From positions 434,001-498,000 of the forward strand of contig NEEC01000016.1 of the NCBI GenBank assembly GCA_002189035.1: a DNA stretch of 64,000 nucleotides. The letters are read 5' to 3'. The position numbers and the translations under genes were made by a program. Source of the DNA: Utricularia gibba. Its lineage: Eukaryota > Streptophyta > Magnoliopsida > Lamiales > Lentibulariaceae. Positions 10,930-53,644 of this stretch are shown in pieces. The notes below the pieces were generated by a model, which was not told the origin of the DNA, did no database searches, and saw only the letters and a list, made by a program, of their open reading frames with translations. Every line of letters starts with the position of its first letter. Position 1 is the stretch's first letter.

Positions 10930-13900
10930 ATGGAATGCGTTTACAAGGACCCAAAGGCTCCAATCGAGGCTAGAGTGCGGGATCTTCTCTCCCGGATGAC
11001 TCTCCTTGAGAAAATCGGCCAAATGACACAAATCGAGCGCAGTGTTGCCACGCCTTCTGCAATCACGGACCGCTTCATAGGTCTCTCAACTTCATTCTCT
11101 TCTTGTTGCATGCTACTTGGTTTTCCTTCTCTCTGCTGCCATCAATTTTTTACTAGCTCTTGGATTTCAAATTCGGTGCAGGGAGTGTGCTTAGTGGTGG
11201 TGGAAGCAAGCCATTTGAAAATGCGAAGTCGGTGGATTGGGCTGACATGATCGATGCGTTACAGAAGGCCGCCCTTGAGACCCGTCTCGGTATTCCAATT
11301 ATTTATGGAACTGATGCAGTTCATGGGAATAGCAACGTCTGTGGAACCACTATTTTTCCTCATAACATTGGCCTCGGGGCCACGCGGTTAGCTTTCTTTC
11401 ATGACAAGGAATTTCAGTGTTTTGATATAATTGGAATAGGCCTCTGAATACTTGGTGAAATGTACTGATTCATATGGGAATTTTTTCCATCTAGAGATGC
11501 TGATCTGGTTCGAAGAATTGGAGAGATAACTGCTCTTGAAGTTAGAGCATGTGGAGCACAGTATGCCTTTGCTCCATGTGTGGCTGTAAGTTGAATGGCG
11601 CATTAATCAGCTTACTGTAAATCATTCTTCTGTTTGCTTTTTTAGTTCAACTCCACTGAACCATTTTTGTTGTTAGATTGTACTCTAGGAATTGTTTTTG
11701 ACTCTATATGTACTAGCAATGAGACATCCGATTTTCAGGTTAGCAGGGACCCCGGTGGGGAAGATGCTTTGAGAGTTACAGTGAAGACCCCGAAGTTGTC
11801 AGAAAAATGACCTCCCTTGTTGCAGGCCTTCAAGGGCAGCCACCTGAGGGGCATCACAATGGCTATCCTTTTCTTGCTGGAAGGTAAAAAAATTTCTCGT
11901 TATTAGCATACAACGCTTCGGCATGGAAGGTGCAAGGTGGATGCTCCGCATGATTCTTATTTTATTATTGATATTGTTGTACAGAGTGAATATGCCACTC
12001 TGATCAAAAATCTTCCATCACTGCATGATTGAATCATCTGCAGTTTGATTCTTTATTTTTACCTTTGTTTTCAGAAAAAATGTAATTGCATCTGCCAAGC
12101 ATTTTGTTGGAGATGGTGGCACAGAGAACGGCAAAAATGAGGGGAATACAGTGGTGTCCTACGATGATCTGGAGGCAATTCATTTGGCTCCATACCTTGA
12201 CTGTCTTTCTCTCGGTGTTTGCACTGTGATGGCATCATACTCAAGTTGGAACGGCCGAAAAATGCACACTGAATATTTTCTTCTCACTGAAGTTCTGAAA
12301 AACAAACTTGGCTTCATGGTACGTTGTATTTCCAAAACATTTTTTCATAGTGTTTCCATCCATGCTCTTCACTCCTCACTCCCTATTTACAATACAATAA
12401 GATGCTATAGCACTCATTATTTCTTTGACAGTAAGCATACAAGGATTCCATGTAATATCAGTCATTGAATGCTGCATGTTATTCATCAGAAACTGCATTT
12501 GTGTTAAAAAAAATGATGCATGGTGCAGGGTTTCATAATATCAGACTGGGAAGCACTGGATCGACTTCATGATCCCTACGGTTCAAATTATCGCCAGGCC
12601 ATCCTGTCCACTGTAAACGCTGGAATTGATATGGTATACAGTGATTTGCAGGATTTCTTTCACCATATTTTTGTTTTTCATCTGTTGCTTTTATCCCCTT
12701 TTTTTTTCAGTTTCGTTCCCTTTCAAGATCTCAGTCACAGTCAATATTATGAGACATTTTGCAGATGTATGGTAACAAAGCATGGTTATTACAAGTTCCT
12801 GTACAATGAATGTGCTGCAGGTGATGGTTCCTTTTAGATTTGAATTGTTCTTAGAAGAGTTTCTGTCACTTGTTGAATCTGGGGAGATACCAATGCCACG
12901 GATCGACGATGCTGTGGAGAGGATTCTACGTGTGAAGTTTGTGTCCGGAGTTTTTGAGCATCCGTTTGCTGACAGAGCCTTGTTAGATGTGGTTGGTTGC
13001 AAGGTAAATTTAAGAATTGTTTTGGAAAATTTTCGAATGTTATTTTTATTTTTTAAAAAATAAAAAATAGTAGTAGAATTTTTTTTTTAAAAAAAGTAAA
13101 AATATACATGATGTTTTCTAAAAAATTTGTAGAGATAGAAATAATTTGGGGAATTTGATGGTAAAAATAGAAATAAAAATAAAGTTAAATATTTTTTATT
13201 TCTATTTTTGATTTATTTTTAATTATACTTAAAAATTATTTTTATCAAAAATAAAAATAAAAATCAGAATTATTTACTAAAAAATTATTTTTGATAAAAA
13301 CAGAAGCAAAAACAGTATTTCAAAATTTTAAACAACACAGTTTTACTTGTGGAGTTGTCCTCTATGTGTAAAGACTGGACATGCTGTGAAATCAAAACTT
13401 TTCCAGATTTGATTCATTCTTATTGCATCATTGCTGAGCATGAGATGCACTCTAGTACCTGTACCTGTATCCTTGGATCAAACTTCTTCTATCATCACTT
13501 TGGATCACTGATTTAGAGCATATCCTCCTGCTGTCTATTCCATTTTCTATGGTTTCAGGCACATAGAGAATTAGCACGTGAGGCTGTTAGAAAATCATTG
13601 GTTCTGTTGAAGAATGGAAAGGATCCACAGAGGCCCTTCCTCCCCTCAACAAGAAAGCCAACCGGATTCTTGTCGCCGGAACACATGCAGACAATCTTGG
13701 CTATCAGTGCGGTGGCTGGACCATCTACTGGGAAGGGAAGAGTGGTAGAATAACTGAAGGTTCGTCTTCTAGCTAGTAGCTTCATGATGTGTTCTTGGGC
13801 TTCACCATTCTCATCTCCTCCAGGAACAACAATCTTGGATGCTGTGAGGGAAGCAGTGGATGAGTCTACAGAGGTGGTACACGAACCAAATCCTTCCAGT

Positions 13901-14302
13901 GAAACATTCTCCGGTGAGGAATTCTCCTTTGCCATAGTCGCAGTCGGAGAGGCTCCGTATGTCGAAACAGGAGGTGATGATCCAGTGCTCAAGATCCACT
14001 TCGAGGGATCGGAGTTGGCCGCGTTGGTTGCGGAAAGAGTTCCCACGGTGTTGATTCTGGTCACCGGTAGGCCGGTGGTGCTGGAGCCATGGCTTCTGGA
14101 GAAGGTGGAGTCTGTGGTGGCGGCCTGGCTGCCCGGAACAGAAGGCAATGGCATCACAGATGTACTCTTCGGGGACTACCCTTTTCAGGGGAAGCTTCCG
14201 ATGACCTGGTTCAGAAACGTCGAGCAGCTTCCGGTGCACCGTGCGCAGAACTCGCTTGATCCTCCTCCTCTCTTCCCTTTCGGCTTTGGGTTGACATCCT
14301 GA
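10930..14302 (+). CDS. GH3 beta-glucosidase/exoglucanase, cytosolic type, with two single-base frame breaks
   Basis: Nine exons: 10930-11080, 11182-11386, 11495-11585, 11739-11883, 12075-12318, 12529-12633, 12821-13003, 13559-13759, 13824-14302. Allowing one missing base in exon 4 and one in exon 8, the phases close and give 601 residues. The family hydrolyses beta-1,3/1,4-glucosides and cell-wall oligoglucans. The nucleophile motif GFIISDW places Asp at 285 and the acid/base motif GEAPYVET places Glu at 490. Both match barley ExoI positions. The protein starts [20 protein letters not shown] with no signal peptide, so it belongs to the intracellular branch. The breaks are at 11750-11753, within the expected VSRDPRWGR motif, and at 13642-13645, within the expected FLPLNKKA. 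Each lies in a run of four C where five are expected. As written, translation would stop in exon 4. It is either an assembly error or a recent pseudogene. Confidence 0.85.
13020..13330. repeat. AT-rich foldback sequence in GH3 intron 7
   Basis: A low-complexity A/T region with two neighbouring perfect inverted repeats. One is a 14-base stem at 13163-13176 and 13196-13209. The other is a 16-base stem at 13239-13254 and 13285-13300. It may be the remnant of a small foldback element. I see no clear terminal repeats or target duplication. Confidence 0.45.
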
Positions 14303-14927
14303 TCTCATCGGCGGCCTGCCGTGTTCCAGTGCCGGAGTTTTCCAAGCCATTTGAGTACACCCTTCATTCAATATTCCTGCGTGTGATATTCTGTTTTATT
14401 TGATTTGGATTTTCGAAAATTCTTCTTGAATTTTTTTTAATAAAATAAAAATTGGATCCAATATTTAAAATGAATCATAAAGAATAAGGAATATATTTCA
14501 ATTCTTCTCGTCATGCATATTACCGTCGATTGCTCGGTCCGCCGCGCCGCCGCCGGCTCGCTCGCCGCTAACACCGCACTGCCTCCGTGACTTATGGATG
14601 TACTCATCGTTTATGTACCGATGAATAATAATTCTGTTTGGGGATCAATTATGTTATTTAATTAAAAATTAATTTTCGGAATATAAAAAATTGATTTCCA
14701 CTGTTTAATGAATATAGATAGCGTACCAAGAAGTTCCGACATTTGCAGTTCACGCCGCCCCGTCAACGCCTATCTCTCTCCCTCATCTACGTGCGCTGGT
14801 TTCTCGATAGCTCTGCGCCGCGGATCACAACTCCGATCCTTGCTCTACGCAGGAAATGCTCTGAGCTTAGAGCTCTCACCGCTTCTTTCTGCACTCTGCG
14901 CTTTCACATTTTCGTCAAACGCGCACC
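14303..14927. other. Spacer between GH3 and KH-protein genes
   Basis: Holds the GH3 3' UTR on the left. A short GC-rich patch of GCC/GCG triplets lies at about 14535-14570, then AT-rich DNA to 14710. The pyrimidine-rich sequence from about 14740 is probably the promoter and 5' UTR of the KH-domain gene. No separate gene is supported. Confidence 0.5.
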
Positions 14928-16073
14928 ATGGCGATGGAGGGAAGCGAATCCGCCGCTCGCAACGGGGATTCCTCTGAGGTCGTCCAGGATCAGTCTCCGT
15001 CTCATAAATCTGATACTCCTTCAGGTTGTCTTTTTTCTATTTGTTGCGTGCATTGTGTGGAGTTTGTGCGCATTGCTCGTGATTGTTAGCGAAGATCTCC
15101 TGTGTGAAAATAGCTAGCTTCAAGTGTGAGTGGATGCTGGAGGCTTCCTTTTCCAGTGACTGATTTTGAGTGGATGTTCCAATCTGTAACAATATTTTTC
15201 ATGTAATCGATTTTGTACTTAAATTCTACCATGGGACTCTTGTTCATGCTGCTGTTGGCTCGATTCAAAATTCTGTCTTTTTCGAAAATGATCTCGATGG
15301 ATTTAGGTGATCAGTAAACTTTCTTTTCTATTTCGTGTTTTTTTTTTTTTTGGGCCATTCTTCGTGTGTTATTGAAACTGAGCTTTTGCTTATTGCACAG
15401 GAAATGAAGAGAAGGGTACGCATCTTCGTTTCCTTTTATCAAACACTGAAGCTGGTTCCATCATTGGGAAGGGTGGTTCAACAATAAATGATATTCAGTC
15501 GCAATCCAGTTCCCGCATCCAGTTGTCACGCAACTATGAATTTTTTCCTGGCACATCTGATAGAATCATCTTAGTATCTGGACCTGTTGTTAGCATACTA
15601 AAGGCAGTTGACCTTATCCTCTCGAAGTTACTGGATGAGGTTATTGAAATCATTTTGAAAGGTTTCCTGATCTAGAATTTTAGGTTTGATCTTTGTATAA
15701 CTGCGTTTATGCTTCTCTAGTTCTATGCCAAAGACGGAGGGCAACTTGATCCAGTATCAAAAATTAGACTGATAGCACCAAATAGTTCTTGTGGTGGTAT
15801 AATTGGAAAGGGAGGGGCAGAAATAAGGTAAATTTCTTCGTGATTTGTTGCCTCCCTCTGGTATGATGGATTGCATGGAGAGTGTATGTTATTTAGGTTG
15901 CTAATCTATAATTTTATGATCTGTCAAACGAGGCTGTGCTATCAGTTAGTAAGATCAGCTGAGGGTTTTCGTACAGTTCAAAGCTGTTTCATGAACGGAG
16001 AGTGTACATAATTCTTGTTTGGAGCCTTTGCAGATCCATTCATTTCACCTTTTCAGTTTTCACTTCTATCTTT

Positions 16074-16104
<31 letters not shown>

Positions 16105-17658
16105 GACTTTCTAGAGCAAATACCTGCTCCTGATCTTATCCGCAATTGTTTCCTTGGATTAGGTCACTTATTGAAGTCTCACAAGCTGAAGTTAAGATAT
16201 CACCACAAGATGCTTATTTCCCTGGCTTGCATGATAGATTGGTGACAGTCACTGGCACATTGGGCGAACAGTTACGGGCTATCGAGCTAATCCTATTGAA
16301 ATTAGTCAGTGATCCATATTATCAGCAGTCAATGCATTCTCCATTCCCATATGCAGGTATAAGTTCATAATGTAAATTACAGACCCAAAATTAGTATCCT
16401 TAGGATTGGCATGAAAGTTAGGCGTTATGCCTTTTTTGCTAAAATAAGGCTGCATGCTAAAGGAGTCATCTTTATTGCGTAAGACTGAAAAGAGAATTAA
16501 ATATTAACATCACTGACGTATGAAATATGGAGACAATTACACCACTTTATGATGTCTGAATGACATGCTTTTTTGTGCATATAAAAGCAGATTCATTTTC
16601 AAGCCGTAATTATAAATAGATTAAATTAACTATCCATACATCCTTTTTTTGTTGGGATTAAAAATGATGCATGAAAAATGAAAATTCCTCTTCTCTTCGT
16701 GTTTATCAATTGATGTAGCTTAAGCCTTTCCTTTTCCGGTCTCAAATCCTGTCATTCATTTACTCGTCTTGAAGCGCTTGTGCACAATGGGATCAACTAC
16801 GGGCCAAATGTGTATGGTGCAAAGTATCCAAGTAACAGGCTTCATAACAAGGCAAGTGATTTCTTGAGACACTGTGTATGATCATATTGTGTCACATCAT
16901 TTTTTGATTTCACAATCTCAATGCTGAACAGCTTTTTCAAAACCATGTTAAAATGCTAACGTGGTACAACGTGCATAATTGCTGATTTCCTTCATCATGT
17001 GCTTGTTTTTAATGGTACCTGAAGTTACTGGTAACTGTGTTTATAGAATCTAGTTCCATGCGTTAGAAATAGTAATGGTTGGCTGCTTCACCGGAATTTG
17101 CACCCTTGGAATTTTTTTTAGGATTAGAATCATGAATCTCAGATTTTTCTGTTATCTTATTTGTTATCTTCATTATTGAGCATTGTCTATGGCAGGAGGA
17201 TAGAAGTAGTTCCGTGACTATTGGTGTTTCCGACGAAAATATTGGATTAGTTGTTGGACGTGGTGGACGTAACATTATGGAAATCAGTCAGGTTATTTTT
17301 TCAGGTTTTTTGTATCTTGTCTAATTTTTTTTTTCCCTGAAGATGCATATTGTCTGATTAATTTTTCATAATTATATTCTGTGGTCCCGCAGCTCAGTGG
17401 AGCTAGGGTAAAGATTTCCGACAGAGGTGATTTCATCCCTGGGACATCAAATAGGTATTGAGTATGGTACTGAAATCTATCACTTTATATGTATGCATCA
17501 GGAATTTGTAACCTGACTGGGATTTCCTGCTTTCTCACAGAAAAGTCACCATTAGCGGGTCACAGAGGGCAATTCGTGCCGCCGAGTCCATGATAACTAG
17601 GAAAATTGCTTCTAGTGGTGGGAGCTCACTGCAATATCTTAAAGTTCAGATTCTATGA
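14928..17658 (+). CDS. BTR1: Three-KH-domain RNA-binding protein, BTR1 type
   Basis: Eight exons: 14928-15024, 15401-15639, 15721-15827, 16163-16356, 16775-16851, 17196-17291, 17393-17454, 17541-17658, giving 329 residues. KH1 has [13 protein letters not shown]2 has [12 protein letters not shown] and KH3 has [11 protein letters not shown], each with the GXXG RNA-binding loop. Order and spacing match Arabidopsis BTR1 (Binding to ToMV RNA), a NOVA/PCBP-like cytosolic single-stranded RNA-binding protein known to bind tomato mosaic virus RNA and limit its multiplication. The linker exon at 16775-16851 is followed by a GC donor (AAG|GCAAGT); its acceptor choice is set only by phase. The last exon is read to TGA at 17656. 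Alternatively, a weak donor after 17580 could join an exon near 17721 and end at 17782, giving a different C-terminal tail. Confidence 0.88.
16074..16099. repeat. (GT)n microsatellite in a BTR1 intron
   Basis: An uninterrupted TG/GT dinucleotide run of roughly 24-26 bases in the intron between exons 3 and 4. Confidence 0.9.
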
Positions 17659-18103
17659 AAAGCATCAAAAGCATTGACAACTTGTGGAATTTGTTTGTTC
17701 GTTTTGTTGTTTCATTTCAGGTGAACTTGGTCCATTCACGAAGATGGATATCAACCCCGAAGAAAGTTTTGTTACAAACTGATGGCAGAAACTAATTTGT
17801 TGAAAAAAGATGATTTCTTTGGATCTATACCAGAGTCGTGCTACTGCTCCAAAATGTGAGAACGATTCTTGACCTTTTTTATGTTCTTTTTTCGACATAT
17901 TGGGATTTATTTCCAGAATCATGCAGTAGGAAACTATAGTAACATAGCTTGCGATGGCATTATTATAATTATGCATAGCATTAGGGAATTGATGATGTGG
18001 GTTTTACCATTTGATGATACTATGACATTGAGTGGTGAAGCTGATGAAAATATGCATGCATCTTTATAATGATAGAACTAGTGAGCCCTTAGCCATGACG
18101 AGC
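17659..18103. other. Convergent 3' region between the KH gene and the glycine-rich gene
   Basis: The two flanking genes converge here, so this stretch should contain both 3' UTRs. It also contains the possible alternative last exon of the KH gene (about 17721-17782). No independent gene is seen. Confidence 0.5.
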
Positions 18104-18742
18104 TCATGGTCCATTCCATTTGCCTCCACCATTTCCATACCCAGATCCATAACCAGATCCATAACCAGATCCACTCCCGTACCCTGAGCTTCCTCCCCCG
18201 CCACCACCTCCTCCTCCTCCTCCTCCACCACTGGCTCCATATCCAGAGCCGCTACCACTACCATATCCAGAACCACTCCCTGATCCATAGCCTGAGCCAC
18301 CTCCACCTCCTTGACCACCACCACCTCCTCCTCCACCTCCTTGTCCACCACCTATTCCGTATCCAGCACCTGTCCCGTATCCAGAACCACTCCCTGCTCC
18401 ATAGCCCGAGCTACCTCCACCTTGTCCTCCTCCACCTCCCTGCCCACCACCACCTCCATACCAGCACCACTCCCATATCCAGAACCATATCCTGATCCAT
18501 ATCCTTTGCCATATCCTTCAATTCCACCTCCACCACCACCTCCACCTCCACCACCCCGGGAATATTGCCGTAGTACTGCCCATTAGCATTCCCATATCCC
18601 AAGCCATACCCAGAACCCGACCCAACTCCCACTGCACCTTCCCCACCACCCAAAAAACTTCCCACCCTAGCCCCAACCCCATATCCACACACAGCATAAC
18701 CAAGAACATCGCTGCAAGCATGGCTGTGCCACATCTTGCCAT
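18104..18742 (-). pseudogene. Secreted glycine-rich (cell-wall type) protein, frame broken three times
   Basis: Read on the minus strand from the ATG at 18742, the first 22 or so codons encode a hydrophobic signal peptide (MARCGTAMLAAMFLVMLCVD). After that the raw frame makes no sense, but neighbouring frames give an almost pure Gly/Tyr/Ser protein. It has long Gly runs and many repeats of GYGSG, and ends NGGGKWNGP before TGA at 18104. Three single-base losses, at 18677-18680, 18554-18557 and 18461-18462, would connect everything into about 213 residues. A TATA box (TATAAATAGG, minus strand) lies at 18841-18850, about 100 bases upstream of this ATG. The TATA position rules out a longer start at 18841. 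The family consists of structural cell-wall glycine-rich proteins. The type is set to pseudogene because the sequence as written is broken, but assembly error is at least as likely. Confidence 0.75.
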
Positions 18743-19908
18743 CTCTAGAACTTGGTGTCCAAAGAAACACCTGTTCTTCTGGTTGTTTAAGATCAGCTCC
18801 TGATCCTCCTTACTCTTAACTACAACCTTTCCAAGTGCCACCTATTTATAGAAATGTGCAACCAGTAGCTCATTGGCAGAAGAGTAGGTTTCATGTAGGT
18901 AGGAGGTACATGTTATTTTCACTGGAATAGTGGTGATGGTGGTAGTGCTCATCATTTTTTCTTCATGGTGTGCACTTTGCTTAAAGCCTGTTACACACCA
19001 CCTTTTTTGACTCTCCGCTCCCGATCAGGTTCCTTCAGTTTTTTTCCCTTCTCACTGACAATGTTTTATTTGTGATTCAAACAAGAGATTGTGCAGCTGT
19101 GGTGCAGAAAGAGTGCTTCATTCTTTTCTTTGAGATGACATTTGTAGGTTTAGAAGATGGCAATTGGCATCAACTCTGAGGGTGATGACTGCCTGCCACT
19201 TAGTGCTTCGGACGCGGGAAATGATTCATTCCACTCCCAAATCTCCTTCCCATAATCACTTCCTAGGACAGCTGGTGTGAAACCAAGCACTTATTCACTG
19301 CTACCTTTTGAACAATTTATCTGAAGTCGATTTCTATGTCTCACACAAATGTAAAATATTTATATCAAATATGATCATTTTTCAAATATACTAAATAACC
19401 GAAAGACGAACACCACTTCTTGCTCTTCGAATATCATTTGATATCGACTGTTTCGTGACCCGAATGCATGGAATTCATAGTCAGTATAAGAGAGTGATGA
19501 TCGTTTTTATCAAATACTTACAGTGCTGCACGTTCGTGTCCCTCGTATCGAACGTGCCCTACGTAGAAGAAAACCCTGCATCTGTGTTACGAAACGGATG
19601 CCCCGTGCGCCTACGTAGAAGAAAGCCCATGATTTTTCTTGCCATGGATTAGTTTACTGCAGACGTATGCATTGACATTTTAATCACGATGCTACGCAAA
19701 AGAGATTAGAGGCATCATTTTTTTTTCTAAAAAGGAAAACTTTATTACATAACAATTTGCATGATGAACGTAAGAGCAGTAGCATATAATTCCACACATA
19801 ATCTGAGTTCCAATTGCTCCAAAAGAGAAGCCATGCAAATTCCACTAAAGATACCAACTCCTTTAAAAACAAAACAAAAAGGCATACCACACACAAACAC
19901 CTAAAACC
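18743..19908. other. Intergenic region with GRP promoter and a short direct repeat
   Basis: The left end holds the glycine-rich gene's promoter (TATA at 18841-18850, minus strand). A 15-base direct repeat, CCTACGTAGAAGAAA, occurs at 19558-19572 and 19610-19624. No coding gene is supported. A 65-codon plus-strand ORF at 19455-19652 has no features. Confidence 0.55.
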
Positions 19909-20331
19909 ATGAAGGTGTTCATCCTCCTGGCGATCTTGGCATCTGGCTGCGCTCTGCAGGTGTCCTACGCCGAGTCCCTTCGATCCTGCCAATTCACAAA
20001 AGCTTACGAGGTCCAAGTGATCAATCAGCTTCCAGAAAACCCCGACCCACTGAGGGTGCACTGCGCATCCAGTGATGATGACTTGGGATATCATAAACTC
20101 ACCACAAACCAAGTTTTCAAGTGGGGTTTCTGTGAGAGCTTCCTTCACAACACCCTCTTCTTCTGTCACCTCAACTGGTCATACCATACAAAAGCCTTCA
20201 ATGTCTACACATCGAGGATGAGAACCGAATGCAAATTCGGTGTTTGTTATTGGATTGCTAGAGAAGATGGGATTTATTTCAATGATAATTTTCCTACTGG
20301 GGTTTCAAGTAGAGTCTATCTCTGGGAATAG
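19909..20331 (+). CDS. S-protein homolog (plant self-incompatibility S1 family), secreted
   Basis: A single exon of 140 residues. Residues 1-21 form a clear signal peptide (MKVFILLAILASGCALQVSYA). The mature part shows the S1/SPH fold pattern: a VQVINQLPEN strand, LRVHCASSDDDLG, a central KWGFCESFLHNTLFFCHLNW block and a C-terminal CYWIAREDGIYF. Conserved cysteines are in the VHC and FFC positions and near the C-terminus. Members are small secreted proteins related to the Papaver pistil S determinant PrsS; most of the many homologs have no known role. Intronless structure and short length are usual for the family. The antisense 161-codon ORF over the same DNA is a shadow. Confidence 0.93.
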   Translation: MKVFILLAILASGCALQVSYAESLRSCQFTKAYEVQVINQLPENPDPLRVHCASSDDDLGYHKLTTNQVFKWGFCESFLHNTLFFCHLNWSYHTKAFNVYTSRMRTECKFGVCYWIAREDGIYFNDNFPTGVSSRVYLWE

Positions 20332-20712
20332 GGAGGTTCAGTCATGCCATTTTCTGAAATAGATATCAGAAACAGAAATAAACTTGTTATTTCTTTCCTA
20401 TCTATGCACACAACAGTTTCGAGTTTAAGGTCAATGTAATAGGATCATGACAATGGAGGGGACGAGAATGAGGGCTCTTTCATTGTGGCACGTTCATGTG
20501 AAATGAGATTTACTAAACACAGACAAGATAGGATATCAGAGTAACACTAAAAGAAGACAATGTGTTAGGAAAACGCGAGTGACAAAAACTCAACTCCTTC
20601 TGATGCATCTTTCCTTTCCATTCGGCCGTTGTTTTGTTTCTTCCGACTACTTTTGCCCAAAAGAAAAAACAGCAGAGAGAAAATATTGTCAAATGCACAT
20701 AACCTGGAGTTT
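20332..20712. other. Convergent 3' spacer between SPH and PP2A B' genes
   Basis: Contains the 3' UTRs of the two convergent genes. No other gene is seen. Confidence 0.5.
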
Positions 20713-27214: not shown

Positions 27215-27428
27215 TTCTTTGCCAAAACACTCACAAACGCTACAAAATTCGACGCAGGAAAATAAATCATCACACAAGACAATCCATTTATTTTTAAACG
27301 CAACGTGAGCCAAACAAATCAATAGAGAGCTGAGTCATCGAATAACCTTGATTCCGCCCGAATGAAGTTAAAAAACGAGCAACTACTAGAAACGAAGATC
27401 CTGGGCCGATGAATTGAGGGTCGCCGGC

Positions 27429-34599: not shown

Positions 34600-37500
34600 A
34601 TGGACGGAGTGGGTGCCAATGGAAAGAAAAGAAAATCTGAGAGTCATGAAAATCGAAATAAAACTGGCGGAGGTTCAAAAATTGTTGAGGATGACTTTGT
34701 TTCCAGGAATGTATCAGAATTTGAGCAGGGTAAAAAAAATCCACAAGAAAGCACTTTGGATGTGTTGAGTTCATGGTATGAAGATGGAGAATCGGATGGT
34801 AAACCTGATTGTGGGGAAACACTTGAGGAGTCAACTGTACAGCCTGCTAAGCATGTCACTGACGCGGAAATCTTGACATCCAGAGATTCTGGAGATTTAT
34901 ATGGAAAGGATAATAGCCAAGAAAATGTCTATCCAGAGACTCGAAAACACAATAAGAGAAGATGGGATGAACCTGATGACGCAAGTGGGAGGACTGGATA
35001 CCGATCAAAATCTGATCCAAGAAGTAGCAAGACTTCTGATTTAAATCTTGAATCTCCAAGTAGAAGTGATATATTGGAAGACAATTTGAATGATTTTCGA
35101 AGAAGAGGATCTCAGTTACTGAATGACAGAGGTATGAGCGGAGAGAAGCAATTAGATGTTGATGAGGAGCAGAGACAGCAAGGACATGCTAATCAAGATG
35201 TTCATGATACCATTGGAAGGTCTTCGAATCCTGATGGGGATGTTGGCACATGGGTAAGAGATAAAAGTAGGAAAGATGTCGACAATCTAGATGTTCCAAG
35301 AATATCTGAGAAGCTAGGAAGGCATCCAGTGGATGCAGATAACACTGAGATGGAATCTGAAAGAGGATCTGATTCTAGGAGGGATGTGGGAAAAGACAGC
35401 TACTGGGATGATAGATTAAAAAATACAGATGATGGTTGGAGTGACAAAAGCAGGGACCGGGAGCATACAAAAGATAATTCGAAAAGAAGGCAAGGCTTTG
35501 AACCGAGAGATGGTGAAACAACCTATGGTAATTCTAGGGATTGGGAATTACCTAAACGTGGCCGTGATAGAGCTGATGGTCGTCCTGGTGGTAGAAAAGA
35601 TGGAAACCGGACAGAAGCTGTTAAAACATCGTCCAAGTATGGAATATCAAATGAAAATTATGATGTCATTGAAATCCAAACAAAACCATTCAACAATGGA
35701 AGAGAAGAGACTAGGCCTACATCTAGGAGAGATGGTGAATTTGATGGAAGGCATCCACCTGATTCACAGGAACTTGCTTATTTAAAGGAGCATCACAATA
35801 CACAAGGATCTGCACAATCTGGAGATGATCCTAAGGATAGCTTCGTGGATGATGATCTGGACCCTCCAGATCGTTCTCCTTGGAGAGATGGCGGTGATTG
35901 GCAGTCAGAGAAATCTCGAGGTAACATGGCTAGTACTGGATCTTCTGGAAGAGGTTCTGCTGGTGGATCCCTTCCTCTGCATGGGAACCAGGAGTCTGGT
36001 ACTCTCAGTGGAGCTACTTCTCAAGGTAACAGGGGGAATAGAATGGGGAGGGTGGGAAGGACGAGAGCAATGGGAAGAGACAATCAGCAGTCTGGTATTC
36101 CATTACCTTTGGCAGGGTCTTCATATGGAGCACTTGCATTGCCACCTTCTGGACCTATCCAAGGTTTACCTCCCACCATGTCACCTGCACCCCTTCCTAT
36201 TCCCCCAGGAGTCTTTATTCCTCCATTTCAGGCTCCTATGATGTGGCCTGGTGCTCGCGGTGTTGAGATGAATATGCTTAATGTACCACCTGGCATGCCT
36301 CCAATTCCCCCTGGAGCACTACCACCTGGATTCTCCCCTGGTGCTCTGGCTTTTAATCAATCAGGGCCTGGAAGAGGAATGCTACCTGGCATTCCTGGTC
36401 CAAATTTTAATCCAATGGGACCACTGATTTCTGGTGACTCCCAGGAGAAACCCTCTGGAGGATGGGGCCCCAATAGAACTAATTCTATTCTAGGAAAAGC
36501 TCCTTCCAGGGAGAGCAGAATGATTACTCTCAAAACTTTGTCGATACTGGCATGAGACCTCAGAATTTCATCAGGGAGTTAGAGCTCACTAGTGTTGTGG
36601 ATGACTACCCAAAGCTTCGAGAGCTAATACAAAAAAAAGATGAAATTGTTTCTAAATCTGCTTCTCATCCTATGTACTACAAGTGTGACCTTCGGGAACA
36701 GGTGCTATCTTCTGAATTCTTTGGTACCAAGTTTGATGTCATTCTTGTAGACCCACCGTGGGAGGAGTATGTTCATAGGGCTCCTGGTGTCACTGACCAC
36801 ATGGAGTACTGGACATTCGAAGAAATAATGAATTTAAAGATTGAGGTCCTTTTTTTTTTGAGTTCCTTGTTTATAATTTTGCAATTGATAGTTCAAGGAT
36901 GCATAACTAAACTTGAACTTCTGTATTTGATGTAATAGTTTTCCCCACCCAGCATTTAGATGTATGTTGTTCAGCGTAAGTTGACTAACATTTGTTGTCA
37001 ACTCTTGCTTTATTATGTAGGCGATTACTGACACTCCATCTTTCATCTTTCTTTGGGTCGGTGATGGTGTTGGCTTGGAGCAAGGTAGACAATGCTTAAA
37101 GAAGGTATAGAGCCAGGGCCGTGGCCTCAACTGTAGTCTAAGCTTCAAGGGGTTCTAATTTTCTAGTCTTTAACTTCCATCTCCTTTCAATGACTCCATC
37201 TTTTGACTATTTGCTTCTGCGTGTCTTGAAAGTGGGGATTTCGTAGATGTGAAGATATATGCTGGGTGAAGACAAATAAAACAAATGCATCTCCTGGTCT
37301 ACGGCATGACTCTCATACTCTGTTTCAGCGCTCAAAGGTAATTTTTTATCAGTAGAGGAGACTGCATTTTTCATGGCAGAATAGCCTTTTTTTAATATGC
37401 CGCGTGGTCTTTAACGTATGAAGATTATAGGAATCCTAAAGTGTATCATTTACGTCCATCTGTGCCATGAAGAAATAACAAATGTGAGGTCTGCCTGCTA

Positions 37501-38697
37501 TTTTCAAGCAGAATAGCCTTATGCGAGCTGCGTGCATAAGGTTCTAGGGGCACCATGAGTGGGACAAATGTTTTCAATCTTCCTTTTTGCTTTCTGATAC
37601 ATTGATTTTTATTTGTAAATGCATGGTGCTCCACATGCTTTTGGCCACACAGATTTTGTGTTGTGAAAGTGCTTGAGTTTTAGTTTTTTCTTGAATAGCT
37701 AACTGCAGTGCTGATGTCGCAGGAGCATTGCCTGATGGGTATTAAAGGGACAGTACGACGCAGTACGGATGGCCATATAATCCATGCCAACATTGACACC
37801 GATGTAATCATTGCGGAAGAACCACCTTATGGTAATGGAGACTACTTAGTTCAAATACCTTGGAATGCCTTCTCCTGTTCTCAGCTTTTCTTGAATATTG
37901 CTCATTATTGTTTGATTCTTGTGACTCACGTTTTACTGGGAACCTAAGTTGCTGCAAAATGTCTATACATGTACATCAAGTTTCCATTCCGCCATTTTCT
38001 TGCATTCCTTGCCCCCCTTGTCAGTGATCTCAGCTTCCATAAAATGCACATTCAGGTTCCACTGCAAAGCCTGAGGATATGTACCGAATCATCGAACATT
38101 TCGCTCTTGGTCGACGAAGGCTGGAGCTATTTGGCGAAGACCATAATATTCGTCCAGGCTGGTTGACTGTTGGTAAAGGGTTGTCCTCATCAAACTTCAA
38201 TCCTGAGGTATTGAATATTTTTCTTCTCTTACATAGTTCTGCATCCTTCAGCCTTGAATGCGGCTCTGGACTGAAAACATGTCTTCCAGGCCTATGTGAA
38301 GAACTTCGCAGACAAAGATGGGAAAGTGTGGATGGGAGGTGGTGGAAGAAACCCACCCCCGGAGGCGCCTCATCTCGTCCTCACGACACCGGAAATCGAA
38401 TCTCTTCGGCCCAAGTCGCCTATGAAGAACCAGCAGCAATCTGCTTCCATAGGTTTGGCTCCATCAAACCCCGGCAGCAAATGGCCGGCCGGAAATTCAC
38501 CACAGACACATGTTATCACTCTGAACCCAGAAGCTGCAAGCTCCAACATTCCTTCCCCTGCTGCAGCAACGTTCAGGGACAGGGGAGACCATATGATGAT
38601 TCCTCCTGATGACAGGAGCGTTGTTGATAGGCACAACCCACGAATTGTTCATCCCAGTGGAGAGTTCTCGGAGTATGACAGCGCGAGTATATTGTAG
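34600..38697 (+). CDS. MTB: m6A mRNA methyltransferase subunit MTB (METTL14-like), one frame break in exon 1
   Basis: Six exons: 34600-36845, 37021-37104, 37233-37337, 37723-37831, 38056-38207, 38290-38697. Allowing one missing base, exon 1 is 749 codons and the product 1034 residues, close to Arabidopsis MTB (963). The long N-terminal half is low-complexity, rich in Arg/Asp/Ser then Gly/Pro. The MT-A70 domain follows with [53 protein letters not shown] and [18 protein letters not shown] pairs with MTA in the nuclear writer complex depositing N6-methyladenosine. In human METTL14 the DPPW is replaced by EPPL; here, as in plants, DPPW is kept. At 36509-36511 (GGG) the frame shifts between KAPSR and the conserved [13 protein letters not shown] block. 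One extra G restores it. MTB is essential in Arabidopsis, which argues for an assembly error. Confidence 0.93.
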
Positions 38698-43680: not shown

Positions 43681-43740
43681 ATGTCTTCTTTTTTTTTTTT
43701 TTAATAATTATTTTTTTTAAAAAAATTGTTGGTGGGGAGT

Positions 43741-43903
43741 CACGTGACGGTTGTCCGCACCGGATGGAGGTGAGAGGGAGGGGGCACATGGCGGACGCGG
43801 CGGATGTCTGCCACGTGGACAATCGGATGGATGCCACAAAGCACTTTCCACTCGACTGGGCCCCACGCCGCCGCAAAACGCAACCCACGTGGTTCCTACG
43901 TCA
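43741..43903. promoter_or_regulatory. Three G-boxes and an ACGT element in 163 bases
   Basis: The palindrome CACGTG occurs at 43741-43746, 43812-43817 and 43886-43891. A TACGTCA element, a bZIP target, lies at 43897-43903. The segment is GC-rich within an otherwise AT-rich spacer. It lies about 650 bases upstream of the probable GATA-factor leader exon. G-boxes bind bHLH and bZIP factors in light, ABA and stress responses. Confidence 0.65.
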
Positions 43904-44154
43904 CCGTTTTTCGGTGGGTTCGCCGTCGTGATGGGAGCTCGGCCGTCGGGGTGTTATGGTAAATTACTGGGTGCCATTCCTCCATAACCGACGGATTATG
44001 GAGAAATGGAGTTGAATTCAAGGTGTGTTTAGGAAAGAATGGGTCCCCGGTGGCGGTCGTCGTCTTCTTTTTTTGAAGTGTTGGTTTCCAAATGCCATGG
44101 TGGTGTAATCAATTGGCGGTTTTGGCAGCGTACGCGTATTCGCATTCTGCGGTG

Positions 44155-44175
44155 TATTGTATTGTATTGTATTAT
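44155..44175. repeat. Pentanucleotide tandem repeat (TATTG)n
   Basis: Four near-perfect copies of TATTG in tandem, at about 44155-44175, upstream of the GATA-factor gene. Confidence 0.75.
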
Positions 44176-44560
44176 GGTGTGTGGGGGCGGGTGCGAAGTG
44201 GGGGTGAAGGAAGGAGTAGACTTTAACATCAAGACTGTGAACCATTGAGCCTGATCGTAAAGGGGGACAGACAGCTTGCAATGAAACCACAGTTTCACCT
44301 ACCATTGTCTCTTTTTTTATTCCTTTTCAGCACCCCTTTTCGTTTCGAGTGAATTGCAAGCATAGAAAGGAACTCACCTCCCACTCAGAAGAGGAAGAAG
44401 AAGAATCCTTCAGTTCGGTGGCTTCTGTTTCCTATCCTTCCTCTTTTTTATCGCGTTCTACGGCGTGCTTCAGACGCCATTACTCCTTCCTTCTTTCTCA
44501 TTTCTCTCGAGAGTGAAGAAGATTGCTCACCTGGGTGGGTTGTTTTGAATTTGAAAACAG

Positions 44561-45348
44561 GTTAGTCTCTGCATGTGGTTGCCCCCTTTTTATTTTTCTC
44601 AATTTTGTGGAAGAAAAAAACTTGCTTTGCCCCCAATTTGCGGCATGCTGTCCGGGGAACTCGTGACTGAGCTTCAAATTCTTTGTTTTCTTCTCTCTTT
44701 CTCTTGGCTTTTGACGACTTTTGTGATGTTAGCTGCAGAAATGGTAGATTCAGTTCTGTTTCCTTTCTTGCTTTCTTCCATGAGTCAAAATTTGATAGCT
44801 TTTTCCATCATTGCCGAGGGGAAAACATTAGAGTATTGACTCTTTGCTCTTCCCATTGTTCAAGGATTGAAGTAGTTAAGTTCTCTTCAGGTTTCTGCAA
44901 CATTTTCTGAACTGTGGCAGTTGCTCCTCTTCTAATTCCTGCTGTTTTAGTTCATTGCTCTCTGCTGTAAAGATTTGGTACATTTTCTCTTGAAAATTGA
45001 ATTTCTTGGCTGTCGGTGCCTTGTGATGTTGGACATTTGTTCACATTCGCCTTCATTTTTCTGTCTTTTCTTCAACTTATTTGCTGGAAGAATCCTATAG
45101 AAGTCGCTTTATGCTAATAATACTTCTTAGCATCTAGTGCTTCAGTGTGAACCCCCACACAGCAATCCTACTTGTATTGCATTGACACGTTCCGTGTCCT
45201 CTTCATTTTTAAGCTGATTGAGAGTCGCCGTGTCCGTTTGGAATCATTGCATTGTAGCCTTAGCATTCAAGCCACAGCTACATAACAGTACTCCATTTTT
45301 CTTCTTGCCATCAAGCTTTATGTGTTCTATGTGAACTTGTTCTTTCAG
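44561..45348 (+). other. Probable 5' UTR intron of the GATA-factor gene
   Basis: A GAAAACAG|GTTAGT donor at 44560/44561 and a TCTTTCAG acceptor ending at 45348 bracket a T-rich stretch with many stop codons. The acceptor lies three bases before the ATG. The pyrimidine- and GAA-rich sequence at about 44340-44560 would be the non-coding first exon. Confidence 0.6.
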
Positions 45349-45351
45349 GAA

Positions 45352-46409
45352 ATGGACTCAAGTTTCATGGATGAGATCGACTGTGGAAACTTCTTCGATC
45401 AAATTGATGATTTGATTAAGTTCCCTGCTGATGGTGAGTGCGGTGGCGGCACCGGTGGCTACTTTGCCGGTTCCGGCGATTCCAAGGAAATTCCGAGCAT
45501 GTGGGGTGGTGCATTGCCTGAGGCTGAAAACCTCTACCCCGGCAGCCGCACAGATGACCTCCTTGTCGAGCTCTCCGTGCCGGTAAGCATCGTCAAGTTT
45601 GGGTTTTCGCCATTGAAGTTAGCTCTAAAGCTCCCATCTTTACTTGTGACCTTCAAATATATGTGGTTGCACATTGCTAAAGCTCTTGTATCTCATTTGA
45701 GTTGCTCCTCTTTCTGCAGTATGAGGATATCGTGCAGCTCGAATGGCTTTCGACATTCGTCGAAGACTCGTTTTCGAGTGAGGGGATGACCATCGGAAAA
45801 GAGAACCTGTTAACCAAAGAGACTTCACCTGATCATTTCCAATCTTGTAGCCCTGTCTCAGTGTTAGAGAGTAGCAGCAGCAGCAGCAGCAGTAGCAGTT
45901 CATCGACTGTAGGGAAAACCAGACCTCCGGTGAGCCCCAGCCACCAGCGTGCAAGAAGCAAGCGCCCTCGGCCACCGGCCTTCATCCCGAGAGCAGGGAT
46001 TCAGCTCATAGAGACTCCTAGACCTTTTGTAGCAACTCCCACAGAAACTGAGAATGTTGCTGGTTCCCGGACAGAGGAGGAGATGATAGAACCAAGTGCA
46101 CCGGAGTCTCAGGAGACAAAGAAGATCAAGATCAGCCAACCATCTCCTCCCAAAGAGACGCAGGCATTCAGGAAATGCCTGCACTGTGAGATCACCAAAA
46201 CTCCACAATGGCGCGCAGGTCCTATGGGTCCAAAAACCCTGTGCAATGCTTGTGGTGTTCGTTACAAGTCCGGCCGGTTGTTCCCGGAATACCGCCCTGC
46301 TGCCAGCCCCACCTTTGTCCCATCTCTGCACTCCAACTCCCACAAGAAGGTCATTGAAATGAGAACCAAAGTGGTGGATGCAATTCCAGCAACAGCCCAT
46401 GCCATGTAG
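45352..46409 (+). CDS. GATA zinc-finger transcription factor, subfamily I
   Basis: Two coding exons, 45352-45582 and 45720-46409, give 306 residues. An acidic N-terminal region ([20 protein letters not shown], then a Gly-rich patch) is followed by the subfamily motif [17 protein letters not shown] poly-Ser tract of 12 residues is encoded by an AGC/AGT repeat at about 45870-45900. A basic segment, RARSKRPRP, comes next. The class IV zinc finger is CX2CX18CX2C at Cys230, 233, 252 and 255 ([20 protein letters not shown]), followed by [20 protein letters not shown]. Such proteins bind WGATAR sites in the nucleus and often act in light- or growth-related programmes; closest in style to Arabidopsis GATA5/9/12. 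The ATG at 45352 follows directly after the leader-intron acceptor. Confidence 0.95.
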
Positions 46410-47661
46410 ATCAGAATGCTGAGATTTTCAACGTTTTCTCCCAAGTCATTCCAAATCTTCAGTCACCAGGAGCTGCATTTCAGGTAGCAGAGTCTAGAAA
46501 GAATGAGTTAGAGGGAAAGTGATAAATTAGGAAGGAATGAGAGCTATCCACCAAAAAAACACTGAAATTTCAGCTCCTCCCTTTATGGCTTAGTTTGTTT
46601 TCTTCTTCCCGCAGCATCATGATACATCCCCCTCCCTATTCCTTCACTGTCATGATCTTGAACTAACAAACCTCATCGTCCGGAACCGGTCCAACATCCC
46701 GTACAAGAAAATGGTCCAGGCGGCTGGTCCCGGTCTACTCCGGCCAACAGCTTAAGCGGTCCCTAGCTCCAAGTACATGAAGCATCATCCTCTTCCCGAG
46801 TGGGCTTTCAGCGGGAGGGCTTTGTTGCCGGCTCTGGTTCAGTACCGTACAGACTCGTCCTTGTAATAGGACCATATTATTCCGAGCCGATCTCAACGCA
46901 ACTCACCTTCTTCCGTTAACCATCTCCGGGAGAGCAAATGCAATGAAGCAGAAGAGGATATTAGTGTCATTTACAAAATTGATCATTTTTACATTCTTTT
47001 ACGTATTTAGGTAAAAAAATTTAATCATTTTTTTCACACATTTTATCAATTAAAGATTATCGTGCACTGTTTTAAAAAATCTAGGGTTAAATTCGATTCA
47101 AATTAAATTAATGTCGTTTAAATAATAATTTCTTTTATTTTTTAAAAATATAATTAAAAATTAATAAATTCAATTCAAAATATTATAATAAAAAAATTCA
47201 CTGAAAGTTGTCACTAAATTAAAAAAATGGATTCAAATTTCAAACACGTTTTTAAATATTTTTATTAAATATATTTATTTATATGAATTCAATAATTGAG
47301 TTAATAATATATTTGAATTATTCATGTGTTGGATTTAATTTTTTTTAGGGGTTAAGGGTAATAATGTAATTTCACAATAGGAAGTTGAAAACTATCCGAC
47401 GACGCAAGAAACGGAAGTATGGTGGGGCCCACGGGAAAAGCTCGCTGTCGATGGCGGGCCTTCCGGAATCCGGACTCCAATCTGTTTATCAATTCCTGCT
47501 TTTCTCCATCCGTTGATTGATTCACGGGAAGGGGAGTAGGAGTAGCTCCCGGATCCTTTTCCGTCACCGATCAGTTCGAGCGGCGGTTGACCTTCAATTG
47601 CCTCCATTTGATTAGATCAACTGCTGTTCCCATCTTTGGTGTCGAGGCGATCGAGCCAACA
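46410..47661. other. Spacer between GATA-factor and alpha-tubulin genes
   Basis: The left 200-300 bases are probably the GATA 3' UTR. 46950-47345 is AT-rich and non-coding. The GC-richer part from about 47390 should hold the tubulin promoter and leader. No TATA box is obvious, and no other gene is supported. Confidence 0.5.
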
Positions 47662-49533
<1,872 letters not shown>

Positions 49534-50005
49534 TGCAACTGAACCAAGTGTTGTTGGGAGGGCTGTTTGTCTCACCTATAAAGTATGTGTGATATGTGTG
49601 ATGTATTTGTTTCTCCTCTGTTAGTGCTGTGAAACTTCGATCCATTTGTGTGTATTCATCGACCGGTAAGCTCCCTGCTTGCTTATTGATTGCTCTTCCA
49701 TCTTTAAGCCTTTTGTTTTTGACAAATTTTTGGGTCTCAAATCAAATTCTATGGAGGCTGACTATCAAGTACAGTATCCTTTCTGCCAAACCAGACAATC
49801 CAAAGACTGCTCTAAGCAGAAATACAAACCAGAGGTTCCTGTTTGAACCAACTGAGCTAATACAAGGCTCTAGAGATAAAAAGAAAGAGGTATTCATGAC
49901 AACAAGTAGACAATAGAGCACAGTGAAATACCTCGTGTTCCAGTAATTTACACATGTCAAAAGTCGTTTGGAGTCCTTCTTTTAACGGTGCTTTTTCATG
50001 GGGGA
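49534..50005. other. Convergent 3' spacer between tubulin and GOT1
   Basis: Should contain the 3' UTRs of both convergent genes. No additional gene is recognised. Confidence 0.5.
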
Positions 50006-50969
50006 CTATACAGGAACTCTTTTACCACGAAACCGTTCAATGAACTGCAGATCAAATATGTTGCAAAATAACATCATAAGCTGCTTCACTTGAGGGCATC
50101 AGTCATTGTTGAAGATGGACTTACTGATCTAACAAATGGTTGCTGGAAAAGCCATCCTATGATAGGAACTTTTTGTAGAAATACGGCCAGTGTTGGCCAG
50201 AAGCCACTGAAAAGATGAATAAAATTTTGCAATCATCAGTGGATAAAATGATATGCTAATGGCGGATGGAGAAGTTGCATGCCTGAAGAGCACGATAAAC
50301 CCATACGCTTCGACCATCATTCCAATCACAGGCCACCCGATGATCACCAAGAAAAAGCCAACACCAAAGGAAACAGTACCCTGCACACAGTGCATTAAAA
50401 AGTAAGGCAGGATTCTTCAAAGCATGTAACTTTTTCTTCTAACGCAAGACGCAAACCTTAAAGTTGGAACGCTTCATGAAGAATTGGATGCATGATCGAG
50501 GCCCGATAGTCAGTGTCACTCCTGACATGAAGAGGATCTGTTTAAGATCAGATTGATGTTAGAAGAGCATACTAGTTTTCCATGGCATTTATGAAATGAT
50601 CAAGTAGCACACTCACATTCCCCATTGCGATGAGTCCCTTATCAAAGAAGAAAATAATTCCTAAAAATGAAAAGAACACTCCGAATCCCGTCAAACCAAG
50701 TCCAATTTCTGTCATTCCACCACAACAGCAGATTAGAGATTGACCAGCATAACGGAAGATGATAAGAGAATGCAAAATACTCTGAAACAAACATAAATTT
50801 CCCAAAAAAACGCCATACGTTAAGCAACCCCTTTTCAGAAGTGCAGTACAGCTTTTTGATTACTTTCATCCCGGATTTAGGTTTTCCCGAATCATAAATC
50901 TCAAGTTAGAAAACCAAAAGAGAACCGAAGAATCTCACTCTTCAGATCGCTCATCTCGAAGGCCACCAT
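50006..50969 (-). CDS. GOT1: GOT1 family vesicle-transport membrane protein
   Basis: Six minus-strand exons: 50969-50939, 50708-50617, 50537-50457, 50380-50283, 50206-50125, 50044-50006. They encode exactly 140 residues, the family length. The start MVAFEMSDLKKIGLGLTGFG and the end FRGKRVPV are nearly invariant in plant GOT1/GOLT1 proteins. About four hydrophobic membrane segments are visible (GFGVFFSFLGIIFFF, LFMSGVTLTIG, FGVGFFLVIIGWPVIG, YGFIVLF plus the GFWPTLAVFL region). The protein acts in ER-Golgi vesicle fusion and traffic. Intron 4 begins with GC (TTCAG|GCATGC at 50282), forced by phase and by the conserved VLF-SGFWPT junction. Confidence 0.95.
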
Positions 50970-51714
50970 TTCTGCAGCGTATCAGGACAAGGCTGTTGCG
51001 ACGGCAGCTAAAACATCAAATCAAACGCAATGCCCCAACAGATCAAAATACCACACCTTCAAGAGCAATCAGAAACTGATAAAATTTCAGAGTTTCAATC
51101 CAAGAAGCGAAATAAATCTGAACAATTTCTCCAAAATACCTCTGGACCCTTCCCAGACGTCAGATCCCAATCCAAACGTTGTTCGAACATTGACGAGCCA
51201 TTAAGCCGGTGGGTTACATTCCAGGCTGGGTCTCTTGCGTCTTGGTCTGGACTAACGTAAGGAACACGGCAGAGCTTTCACCGTGGGCTAACCTTCATGA
51301 CTTCGAACTTTAAAGCACCGTACACTGGGCCTAAATAAACATCCTGGGCTGGACCGGGCCCATATGCCTTGCTCCTTCTCAGGGGCCGAGCCGTCTGGAT
51401 GTAGCTTAAAATAATGTGAAAACATGATCATTTGAGGATATATATGGGAAAACAAATATTTTCAATCCTAATTTTTTAATTTAATATGCTAATGAAAAAA
51501 AAAGTAATAATCTAATAAAGATTAAATCTTGAAACTGGAACGAAAGATAGATATTTAAGAACTCTCATTTGATTAACACGAAATTTATAAGAACATGATT
51601 GACAAGAAAACATCACAATTTATCCCCTGATTATAAATAGTAGATTTATAAATGAGAGAAACTACCGAAGGTTAGAGAGTGATTGTCTCTTGGCCTCGTG
51701 TTCAAAAATGGTAC
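50970..51714. promoter_or_regulatory. GOT1 promoter region with four site II elements, and PPR 3' flank
   Basis: TGGGCC/T-type site II elements lie at 51284-51289, 51326-51331, 51345-51350 and, inverted, at 51356-51362, 315-395 bases upstream of the GOT1 ATG. Site II elements bind TCP factors and mark proliferation and housekeeping promoters. The part from about 51400 is AT-rich, and its right end is the 3' UTR of the minus-strand PPR gene. Confidence 0.5.
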
Positions 51715-53644
51715 TTATGGTGCTTTCAGCAAACTACAAGCAGGAACCTTCTTCAACCCTTTTAGTTTCATTTGCTTTCTAGCATCATCTGTGCCATGGA
51801 TGAACCCTATGGCAGAAGATAAGTTGGCAGCGAGGACATAGTTTGCTCCAACACCAGGCTCTATTTTCAGTAGAAGTTGGACAAGATGTTCATCAGGATA
51901 TATATTGGGGTAATGGTTCTTGCACGCATTCAAGTAACTCCTCAGGATAATAGAGTTTGGCTCCATTGGCATGTTCAGGATAGTCTGGTGTGCTTCTTTT
52001 ATCTTTCCAGCTCGACAGAGTAAGTCGATCATGCATCCGTAGTGCTCCAAAGTTGGCTTGATGCTATAGACATTCACCATTCTGTGGAAAAGCTCTTGCC
52101 CCTCATTCACAAGGCCTGTATGACTACAAGCGGATAATATTGCTGAAAATAGTGTACTGTCTGGATAGAGGAGGCCTTCTTCCTCCATTCCATGAAAAAG
52201 AGATAGAGCCTCCTGTCCACGGCCATAGTCAGCAAGGCTCGATATCATGATGGTCCAACATTGAAGATTCTTCTCAGTTATGCCATAAAAGATGCGGAGG
52301 GCTTCTCGTAGGTACCCTGATTTCGCATACATATGCAGAAGAGCTGTCCGAACGCCAATATGCAGCTCCAACCCAGTGATGAGGAGATGGGAATGAATGC
52401 ATTTTCCGAGTCTTACATCGAGGAGGTTGGTGCAAGCTGCTAGCACACTTACAAAGGATGTTGAATTGGGGTTCTCTTTGGCCATATTCATATCTTTGAA
52501 CACCCTCAAAGCATCCAAATACAGGCCACTGCAAGCAACATAATTCAGGTCAGTGTTTGCTTTTGCTTACAAAAAAAAACTTGTGGTCGCAGAGGTTAAT
52601 ACCAGAAATGATTATGGTGAACTAGCCTATCACTACCATGTCAAAAATAAGAGTCCTTTCTAGAAACCTCTTGGGATGATTCAACAGAAATCCTAAGGCC
52701 TTCATACATGAAAGCATCTAATGCTTACTGCTACGTAGCCAATGCTGATTAGAGCATCTTTACCAGTTTCCGGAAATGCTGTTGTGGCATTTCCGGAAAT
52801 GGTAAAATGTTTTTGGAAACCACTACATTTGTTTTTAATTTTTTACGAAAACAGAAATGAGTAAACTTGGTTTCCGTTTACGTTTAAAATATAATTTATA
52901 CTATTTATTTTAATGTTATTTTAATATTATGATTTTCAGAAATTGATACAAATGTAAATAAAACTTAATAAAATAAACCTAATAACTCAATTTCAGGAAA
53001 TGTCAATTCATCATTTCCAATAAATATGCTCTTACTGATAAGGAAAACGTACCAATCAACATACGCAGCAATGAGAGAACTCCAAGAGACCACATCCCTG
53101 TGGCGCATTTCATCGAACACCTTGACTGAAAACCCACCAACACCACACGCTCCGTACATCTTCAACAGAGTATTGTTCACATTCAAGCAGTAATCATATC
53201 CCGCCTTCAAAACCATGGAGTGCGTCGATCCGCCGCACGCAATCATCGAACAGCGCCCGCACGCCTTGATAACAAAAGAGAACGTATAAGCGTCGGGCTT
53301 ACGCCCACCAGGCGTCCGTAGAAGGTCAACAAACAACTTGATCGCCTCTCCCGGAACAGAGCTCTTGGAATACGCCCATATAACCGTGTTCCATGCAAAC
53401 AGCGGCGGAGGTTTAACAGAAGAATGGTCAAGGAGATCTCTTGCGTAGCGTACAGAAACGGAGGCAGCGAGCAACACGAGGCGATTGAAGTGGAATTCAT
53501 CGTGATCGGGTGAGTTTTGATATGCTGGGAATGGATAACTTGAAGCCCGTCGATAGATAATCGCCCTAGTTTCTGTATCTGGCGCGGTATCATCTGCCAA
53601 CTCAAGCGGCAAGCTCTACCTCCACCTCCACCTCCATCTCCCAA
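51715..53644 (-). CDS. Pentatricopeptide repeat protein (PLS/E type), one frame break near the N-terminus
   Basis: Two minus-strand exons, 53644-53053 and 52528-51715, with phase 2 at the intron, give 468 residues if one base is restored. Repeats are typical of PLS-class RNA-editing factors: NTVIWAYSKSSVPGEAIKLF, TFSFVIKACGRC, VNNTLLKMYGACG, VSWSSLIAAY, GVRTALLHMYAKSGYLREAL, FSAILSACSHTGLVNEG and YGCMIDLLCRAGKI. A partial E-like region follows and there is no DYW domain. The frame carrying the repeats has no ATG. The ATG at 53644 is in another frame, which carries the family-typical GLQVIHSQHIKTH. The two join perfectly if CCC at 53508-53510 (GGG on plus) were CCCC, giving KTHPDHDEFHFNRL. Whether the start is 53644 or the internal ATG of MIPRQIQ is open. 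A MITE sits in the intron. Confidence 0.82.
52752..53031. mobile_element. PIF/Harbinger-like MITE in the PPR intron
   Basis: A 280-base non-coding element flanked by TTA at 52749-52751 and again at 53032-53034. Its ends are imperfect inverted repeats: GAGCATCTTTACCAG at the left, and GAGCATATTTATTGG read inward from the right. The left part also repeats a TTTCCGGAAATG motif. TTA target duplications with GAGCAT-type termini are typical of Tourist/PIF-Harbinger MITEs. It carries no transposase. Confidence 0.7.

What the first reader, a model, noticed from the sequence alone, without database searches (positions are those of the whole stretch)
11750..53510. Seven single-base frame breaks in four genes, nearly all losses in C/G runs
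Seen directly: GH3 (11750-11753; 13642-13645), glycine-rich protein (18461-18462; 18554-18557; 18677-18680), MTB (36509-36511) and E-class PPR (53508-53510) each lose the conserved frame by exactly one missing base. At most sites one extra C or G in an existing C/G run restores family-conserved residues and intron phase. No break of this kind was found in A/T runs, although exons contain many. The uniform direction and base composition point to homopolymer under-calling in the assembly rather than independent gene death.
Basis: partly seen in the sequence, partly recalled or inferred. Interest (0 to 1): 0.75.

Follow-up and report, generated by a model that had tools for sequence, protein, structure and literature searches.

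The report
Missing bases from genome assembly errors
Seven apparent breaks in four plant genes are almost certainly single letters dropped by the genome assembly at short runs of C or G, the same fault recurs in conserved genes across this genome, and the genes are probably intact in the living plant.

Summary
The seven frame breaks are in the sequence, and every one is a loss of exactly one base. The GH3 and MTB sites are secured by solved homologues, and the PPR site by frame logic. The three breaks in the glycine-rich protein rest on low-complexity sequence.

In GRAS, HSP70, UGT and BAHD genes across the same genome I found 29 in-exon breaks of one base fewer, 5 of two fewer and none of one more. 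Breaks sit at C/G runs of 4 or longer 13 times against 2.9 expected by chance; for A/T runs the figures are 1 and 3.7.

At one homologous GRAS site, all three genes whose synonymous codons make a 5-6 C run are broken, and a paralogue with the same residues but an interrupted run is intact. One GRAS gene assembled on three overlapping contigs is intact on one and broken on the other two, and the copies differ almost only by indels.

The genome fits the published Utricularia gibba PacBio/HGAP assembly. Residual one-base deletions in G/C homopolymers are a known fault of that pipeline. This is an artefact, not gene death and not new biology.

The parts
10930..14302 (+). Glycoside hydrolase family 3 gene (beta-D-glucan exohydrolase type), two frame breaks
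   Evidence: PF00933 and PF01915 split over three frames; barley ExoI matches; intact paralogue L095
11750..11753 (+). Frame break 1 in GH3: CCCC, one base fewer, inside the conserved RDPRWGR motif
13642..13645 (+). Frame break 2 in GH3: CCCC, one base fewer, before [16 protein letters not shown]
18104..18742 (-). Glycine-rich secreted protein gene, three frame breaks
   Evidence: three-frame translation; no homologue tested
18461..18462 (-). Frame break in glycine-rich gene at CC (weak placement, low complexity)
18554..18557 (-). Frame break in glycine-rich gene at CCCC
18677..18680 (-). Frame break in glycine-rich gene at CCCC, just after the signal peptide
34600..38697 (+). MTB (METTL14-type m6A methyltransferase subunit) gene, one frame break
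   Evidence: METTL14 chains E=1.6e-29; only copy found in the genome apart from a deleted relic on C505
36509..36511 (+). Frame break in MTB at GGG, one base fewer
51715..53593 (-). E-class PPR gene, one frame break near the N-terminus
   Evidence: PPR repeats and E motif in downstream frames; start codon only in the upstream frame
53508..53510 (-). Frame break in PPR at GGG (CCC on the coding strand), one base fewer

Best explanation
The breaks are consensus errors of a long-read (PacBio, HGAP/Quiver-type) assembly. At short C or G runs the consensus drops one base, so an intact gene looks frame-shifted. The fault is genome-wide, always a loss, and its probability rises with C/G run length. 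The organism is most likely Utricularia gibba. Shown here: direction, C/G bias, dependence on codon choice, and disagreement between redundant contigs. Inferred: the sequencing chemistry, the identity of the assembly, and that each of the seven window sites is such an error.
For: All seven window breaks are one base fewer. Genome-wide in GRAS, HSP70, UGT and BAHD: 29 of one fewer, 5 of two fewer, 0 of one more among pairs with no room for an intron; many are exactly one base short of the profile length. Frameshift-tolerant alignment gives 34 single-loss events; C/G run >=4 at 13 against 2.9 expected (0 of 2000 random draws reach it), C/G run >=5 at 8 against 0.6, A/T run >=4 at 1 against 3.7. 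Per run of >=4: 13 of 331 C/G runs against 1 of 422 A/T runs, Fisher p=1.7e-4; the rate rises with length to 4 of 11 for runs of six. Natural experiment: at the GRAS GGPP site, L035, L036 and L040 with 5-6 C runs are all broken, while L022, an 85% identical paralogue of L040 with the same residues encoded as GGCCCTCCC, is intact. The GH3 paralogue is intact at both sites and has an interrupted run at the second. Redundant contigs: the GRAS gene on C422 is intact; the copy at the start of C416 lacks one base of a GG and is broken; the copy at the end of C414 differs from C422 by 8 indels and 0 substitutions; C316 against C412 shows 1 substitution and 10 indels, all losses in the small contig. 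Literature: P6-C4/HGAP/Quiver left 205 indels 'nearly all' in G or C homopolymers (PMC4832174); 561 single-base deletions in another PacBio consensus (PMC4888979). U. gibba was assembled with HGAP at 88x, contig N50 3.4 Mb (PMC5793159), and its 6.8 Mb Unitig_8 (PMC8333044) fits contig C451 of 6,822,880 bp.
Against: No reads or second assembly could be consulted. More than half of the genome-wide breaks sit at C/G runs of three or fewer, so run length alone does not explain all. The redundant-contig comparison involves contig ends or small contigs, where coverage is probably lower than inside contig C402. Single real frameshifts among the set cannot be excluded.
Confidence: 0.95

Rival explanations
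1. The four genes are real young pseudogenes, each killed by single-base deletions.
For: The species has a shrunken genome with much fractionation; a truly deleted duplicate of MTB exists on C505 and DCL3 really lacks its helicase part.
Against: Real loss in this genome looks different: large deletions. Pseudogenes should also collect stops and insertions; I see 0 one-base gains and almost no stops. GH3 has two breaks and otherwise well conserved sequence. MTB is the only copy found and its homologue is essential in Arabidopsis (general knowledge).
Confidence: 0.03
2. A real mutational process in this plant contracts C/G runs, so that alleles or somatic copies with lost bases are common.
For: Direction and composition alone would fit a C/G-run contraction bias.
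Against: Such losses in single-copy conserved genes would be removed by selection. Copies of one locus on redundant contigs differ by indels with 0-1 substitutions, which does not look like haplotypes.
Confidence: 0.015
3. Some breaks are misread gene structure: introns, wrong frame choice in repetitive protein, or programmed frameshifting.
For: The glycine-rich gene is low complexity, and three GRAS cases proved to be intron-sized gaps.
Against: GH3, MTB and PPR breaks have no room for an intron; GH3 and MTB are anchored by homologues. No shared slippery motif or structure is needed once codon choice explains which paralogue breaks.
Confidence: 0.03

Closest known systems
Residual single-base deletions in G/C homopolymers of PacBio RS II HGAP/Quiver assemblies (PMC4832174, PMC4888979)
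   Same: One-base losses, G/C runs, rarely substitutions, frameshifts in otherwise intact genes
   Different: There shown by Illumina polishing in bacteria; here inferred from protein conservation, paralogues and redundant contigs in a plant genome, and many runs are only 2-4 bases long
Pseudogenes by frameshift after whole-genome duplication
   Same: Broken reading frame in a recognisable gene
   Different: No insertions, almost no stop codons, no large deletions, breaks tied to C/G runs and codon choice

Membership tests
Long-read consensus deletion error | Loss, not gain, of single bases | tested here: met
   29 one fewer, 5 two fewer, 0 one more; 7 of 7 in the window
Long-read consensus deletion error | Concentrated in homopolymers, G/C above A/T | tested here: met
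   C/G >=4: 13 against 2.9 expected; A/T >=4: 1 against 3.7; Fisher p=1.7e-4
Long-read consensus deletion error | Independent consensus copies of one locus disagree by indels, not substitutions | tested here: met
   C422/C414: 8 indels, 0 substitutions; C422/C416: 1 and 1; C316/C412: 10 and 1. The C241/C304 pair has many substitutions and is a divergent or chimeric duplicate, so it does not inform
Long-read consensus deletion error | Accurate reads carry the longer run | not testable with these tools
   No reads available
Pseudogene | Stops, insertions and deletions accumulate together | tested here: not met
   In frameshift-tolerant alignment only 2 in-frame stops in about 70 stretches, in L052 and L088; no one-base gains
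Pseudogene | Loss independent of synonymous codon choice | tested here: not met
   Broken copies carry the uninterrupted C run; intact paralogues carry interrupted runs

The most novel reading that the evidence does not exclude
The losses are real: the plant has a strong contraction bias at C/G runs and tolerates or corrects many frame-shifted conserved genes.
Probability: 0.02. Interest if true: 0.8.

Novelty: not a real feature. Interest (0 to 1): 0.2.

Why it matters
In the conserved families sampled, about one such break occurs every 2 kb of coding sequence (31 in 66 kb; the sample was chosen partly for broken genes, so the true mean is lower). Gene models, pseudogene counts and gene-loss claims drawn from this assembly without short-read polishing are therefore unreliable wherever a loss rests on a one-base frameshift. 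Not every reported loss is affected: the truncated DCL3 reported for U. gibba is not of this kind.

Tried and rejected
(1) Idea that the published DCL3 truncation is the same artefact: rejected. The DCL gene on C213 has PAZ and RNase III domains, but no helicase or Dicer-dimer domain was found in any of the three frames of its strand in the 5-6 kb upstream, and the paper reports 5' RACE (PMC8333044). (2) GRAS pairs C375c, C1a and C4 look like frame breaks in the table but have intron-sized gaps, and were set aside. (3) A first alignment set-up that allowed 1- and 5-base steps gave compensating false events; it was replaced by one allowing only one base fewer or one more, with a stop costing the same. 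(4) P450 and UGT tables are incomplete or cover short domains, so they gave few usable pairs. (5) C241 against C304 was meant as a further replicate, but its many substitutions mark it as a divergent or chimeric duplicate. (6) A DNA search for redundant copies of the window's GH3 and MTB found none, so those sites have no internal replicate.

Full report
What was checked. The window is contig C402:434001-498000 of a 100.09 Mb genome in 516 contigs. Reading all three frames at each reported site shows at every one a move to the next-lower frame, that is, exactly one base fewer than a continuous reading needs. Both GH3 sites (here glycoside hydrolase family 3, not auxin GH3) are anchored by barley exohydrolase ExoI (E 2e-13 and 2e-16), by Pfam domains split among frames and by a second copy on contig C3 that reads through both places without a shift. 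The MTB site is anchored by METTL14 structures (E 1.6e-29). The PPR site is anchored by frame logic: the only start codon is in the upstream frame and the repeats are in the other frame. The glycine-rich gene needs three losses to join its signal peptide to its Gly/Tyr-rich body; this is plausible but rests on low-complexity sequence, and the CC site is the weakest.

Is it local or general? I used four families with long exons as probes across the same genome: GRAS, HSP70, UGT and BAHD transferases. Where two matches of one gene follow each other with no room for an intron, I compared their frames: 29 pairs are one base short, 5 are two short, none is one base long. Many are exactly one base short of the profile length. 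A frameshift-tolerant alignment that charges the same for a loss, a gain or a stop gave 34 placed single losses. The few gains it proposed were introns, compensating pairs in diverged ends or double losses.

Where do they sit? Intervals of uncertainty around the losses contain a C/G run of four or more in 13 of 34 cases against 2.9 in random intervals of the same genes, and of five or more in 8 against 0.6. For A/T runs the figures are 1 against 3.7 and 0 against 0.8. Per run, 13 of 331 C/G runs and 1 of 422 A/T runs of four or more lie at a break (Fisher p 1.7e-4), and the share rises with C/G run length. More than half of the breaks lie at C/G runs of three or fewer, as do the MTB and PPR sites in the window.

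Codon choice decides. At the conserved GGPP site of GRAS proteins, the three genes whose synonymous codons form a run of five or six C are all broken (L035, L036, L040), and two with a run of four are broken too (L034, L037). None of the genes with runs of three or fewer is broken there. L022, 85% identical to L040, encodes the same residues with an interrupted run and is intact. The intact GH3 paralogue likewise lacks the run at the second site. A selection or gene-death account does not predict this; a sequencing account does.

An internal replicate. One GRAS locus was assembled three times. On C422 (L029) it is intact. At the start of C416 (L049) it lacks one base of a GG and is broken at that place. 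At the end of C414 (L041) it differs from C422 by eight indels and no substitution. C316 and C412 also overlap, with 1 substitution and 10 indels, all losses in the small contig, including runs of two, four and five C/G. These copies lie at contig ends or on small contigs, so they show the error type rather than its rate inside large contigs.

Known context. Residual indels in P6-C4 HGAP/Quiver assemblies have been reported as nearly all in G or C homopolymers (PMC4832174) and as single-base deletions (PMC4888979). Size, contig lengths (C451 6.82 Mb against the published 6.8 Mb Unitig_8; PMC8333044) and the long contigs fit the HGAP assembly of Utricularia gibba (PMC5793159). The species name is an inference.

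What real loss looks like here. The duplicate of MTB on C505 survives only as two fragments, and the DCL gene on C213 lacks its helicase part in every frame of its strand. Both are large deletions without the C/G-run signature.

Verdict. The breaks should be treated as assembly artefacts. Only reads can settle each of the seven sites.

Noticed in passing
window 13005-13350: The GH3 intron carries a MITE-like AT-rich element with partly self-complementary halves; about 40 related copies at 70-80% identity elsewhere in the genome.
   Followed up: no
G000:C505:1812560-1813105: Relic of a duplicated MTB gene: two short fragments matching the start of the gene and a downstream part, with about 2.4 kb missing between them.
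   Followed up: partly
L072 (G000:C213:2755500-2763300): A DCL gene with PAZ and two RNase III domains but no helicase or Dicer-dimer domain upstream in any frame of its strand; fits the truncated DCL3 reported for U. gibba in PMC8333044.
   Followed up: yes
L029 / L041 / L049 (contigs C422, C414 end, C416 start): The same locus is held on three contigs, so C414 and C416 probably join through C422; the contig ends carry extra indel errors.
   Followed up: yes
L093 (C241:10001-20000) and L094 (C304:2234061-2244060): Small contig C241 matches C304 at 100% in parts and at 90-96% in others around tandem HSP70 genes; possibly a haplotype or a chimeric contig.
   Followed up: partly
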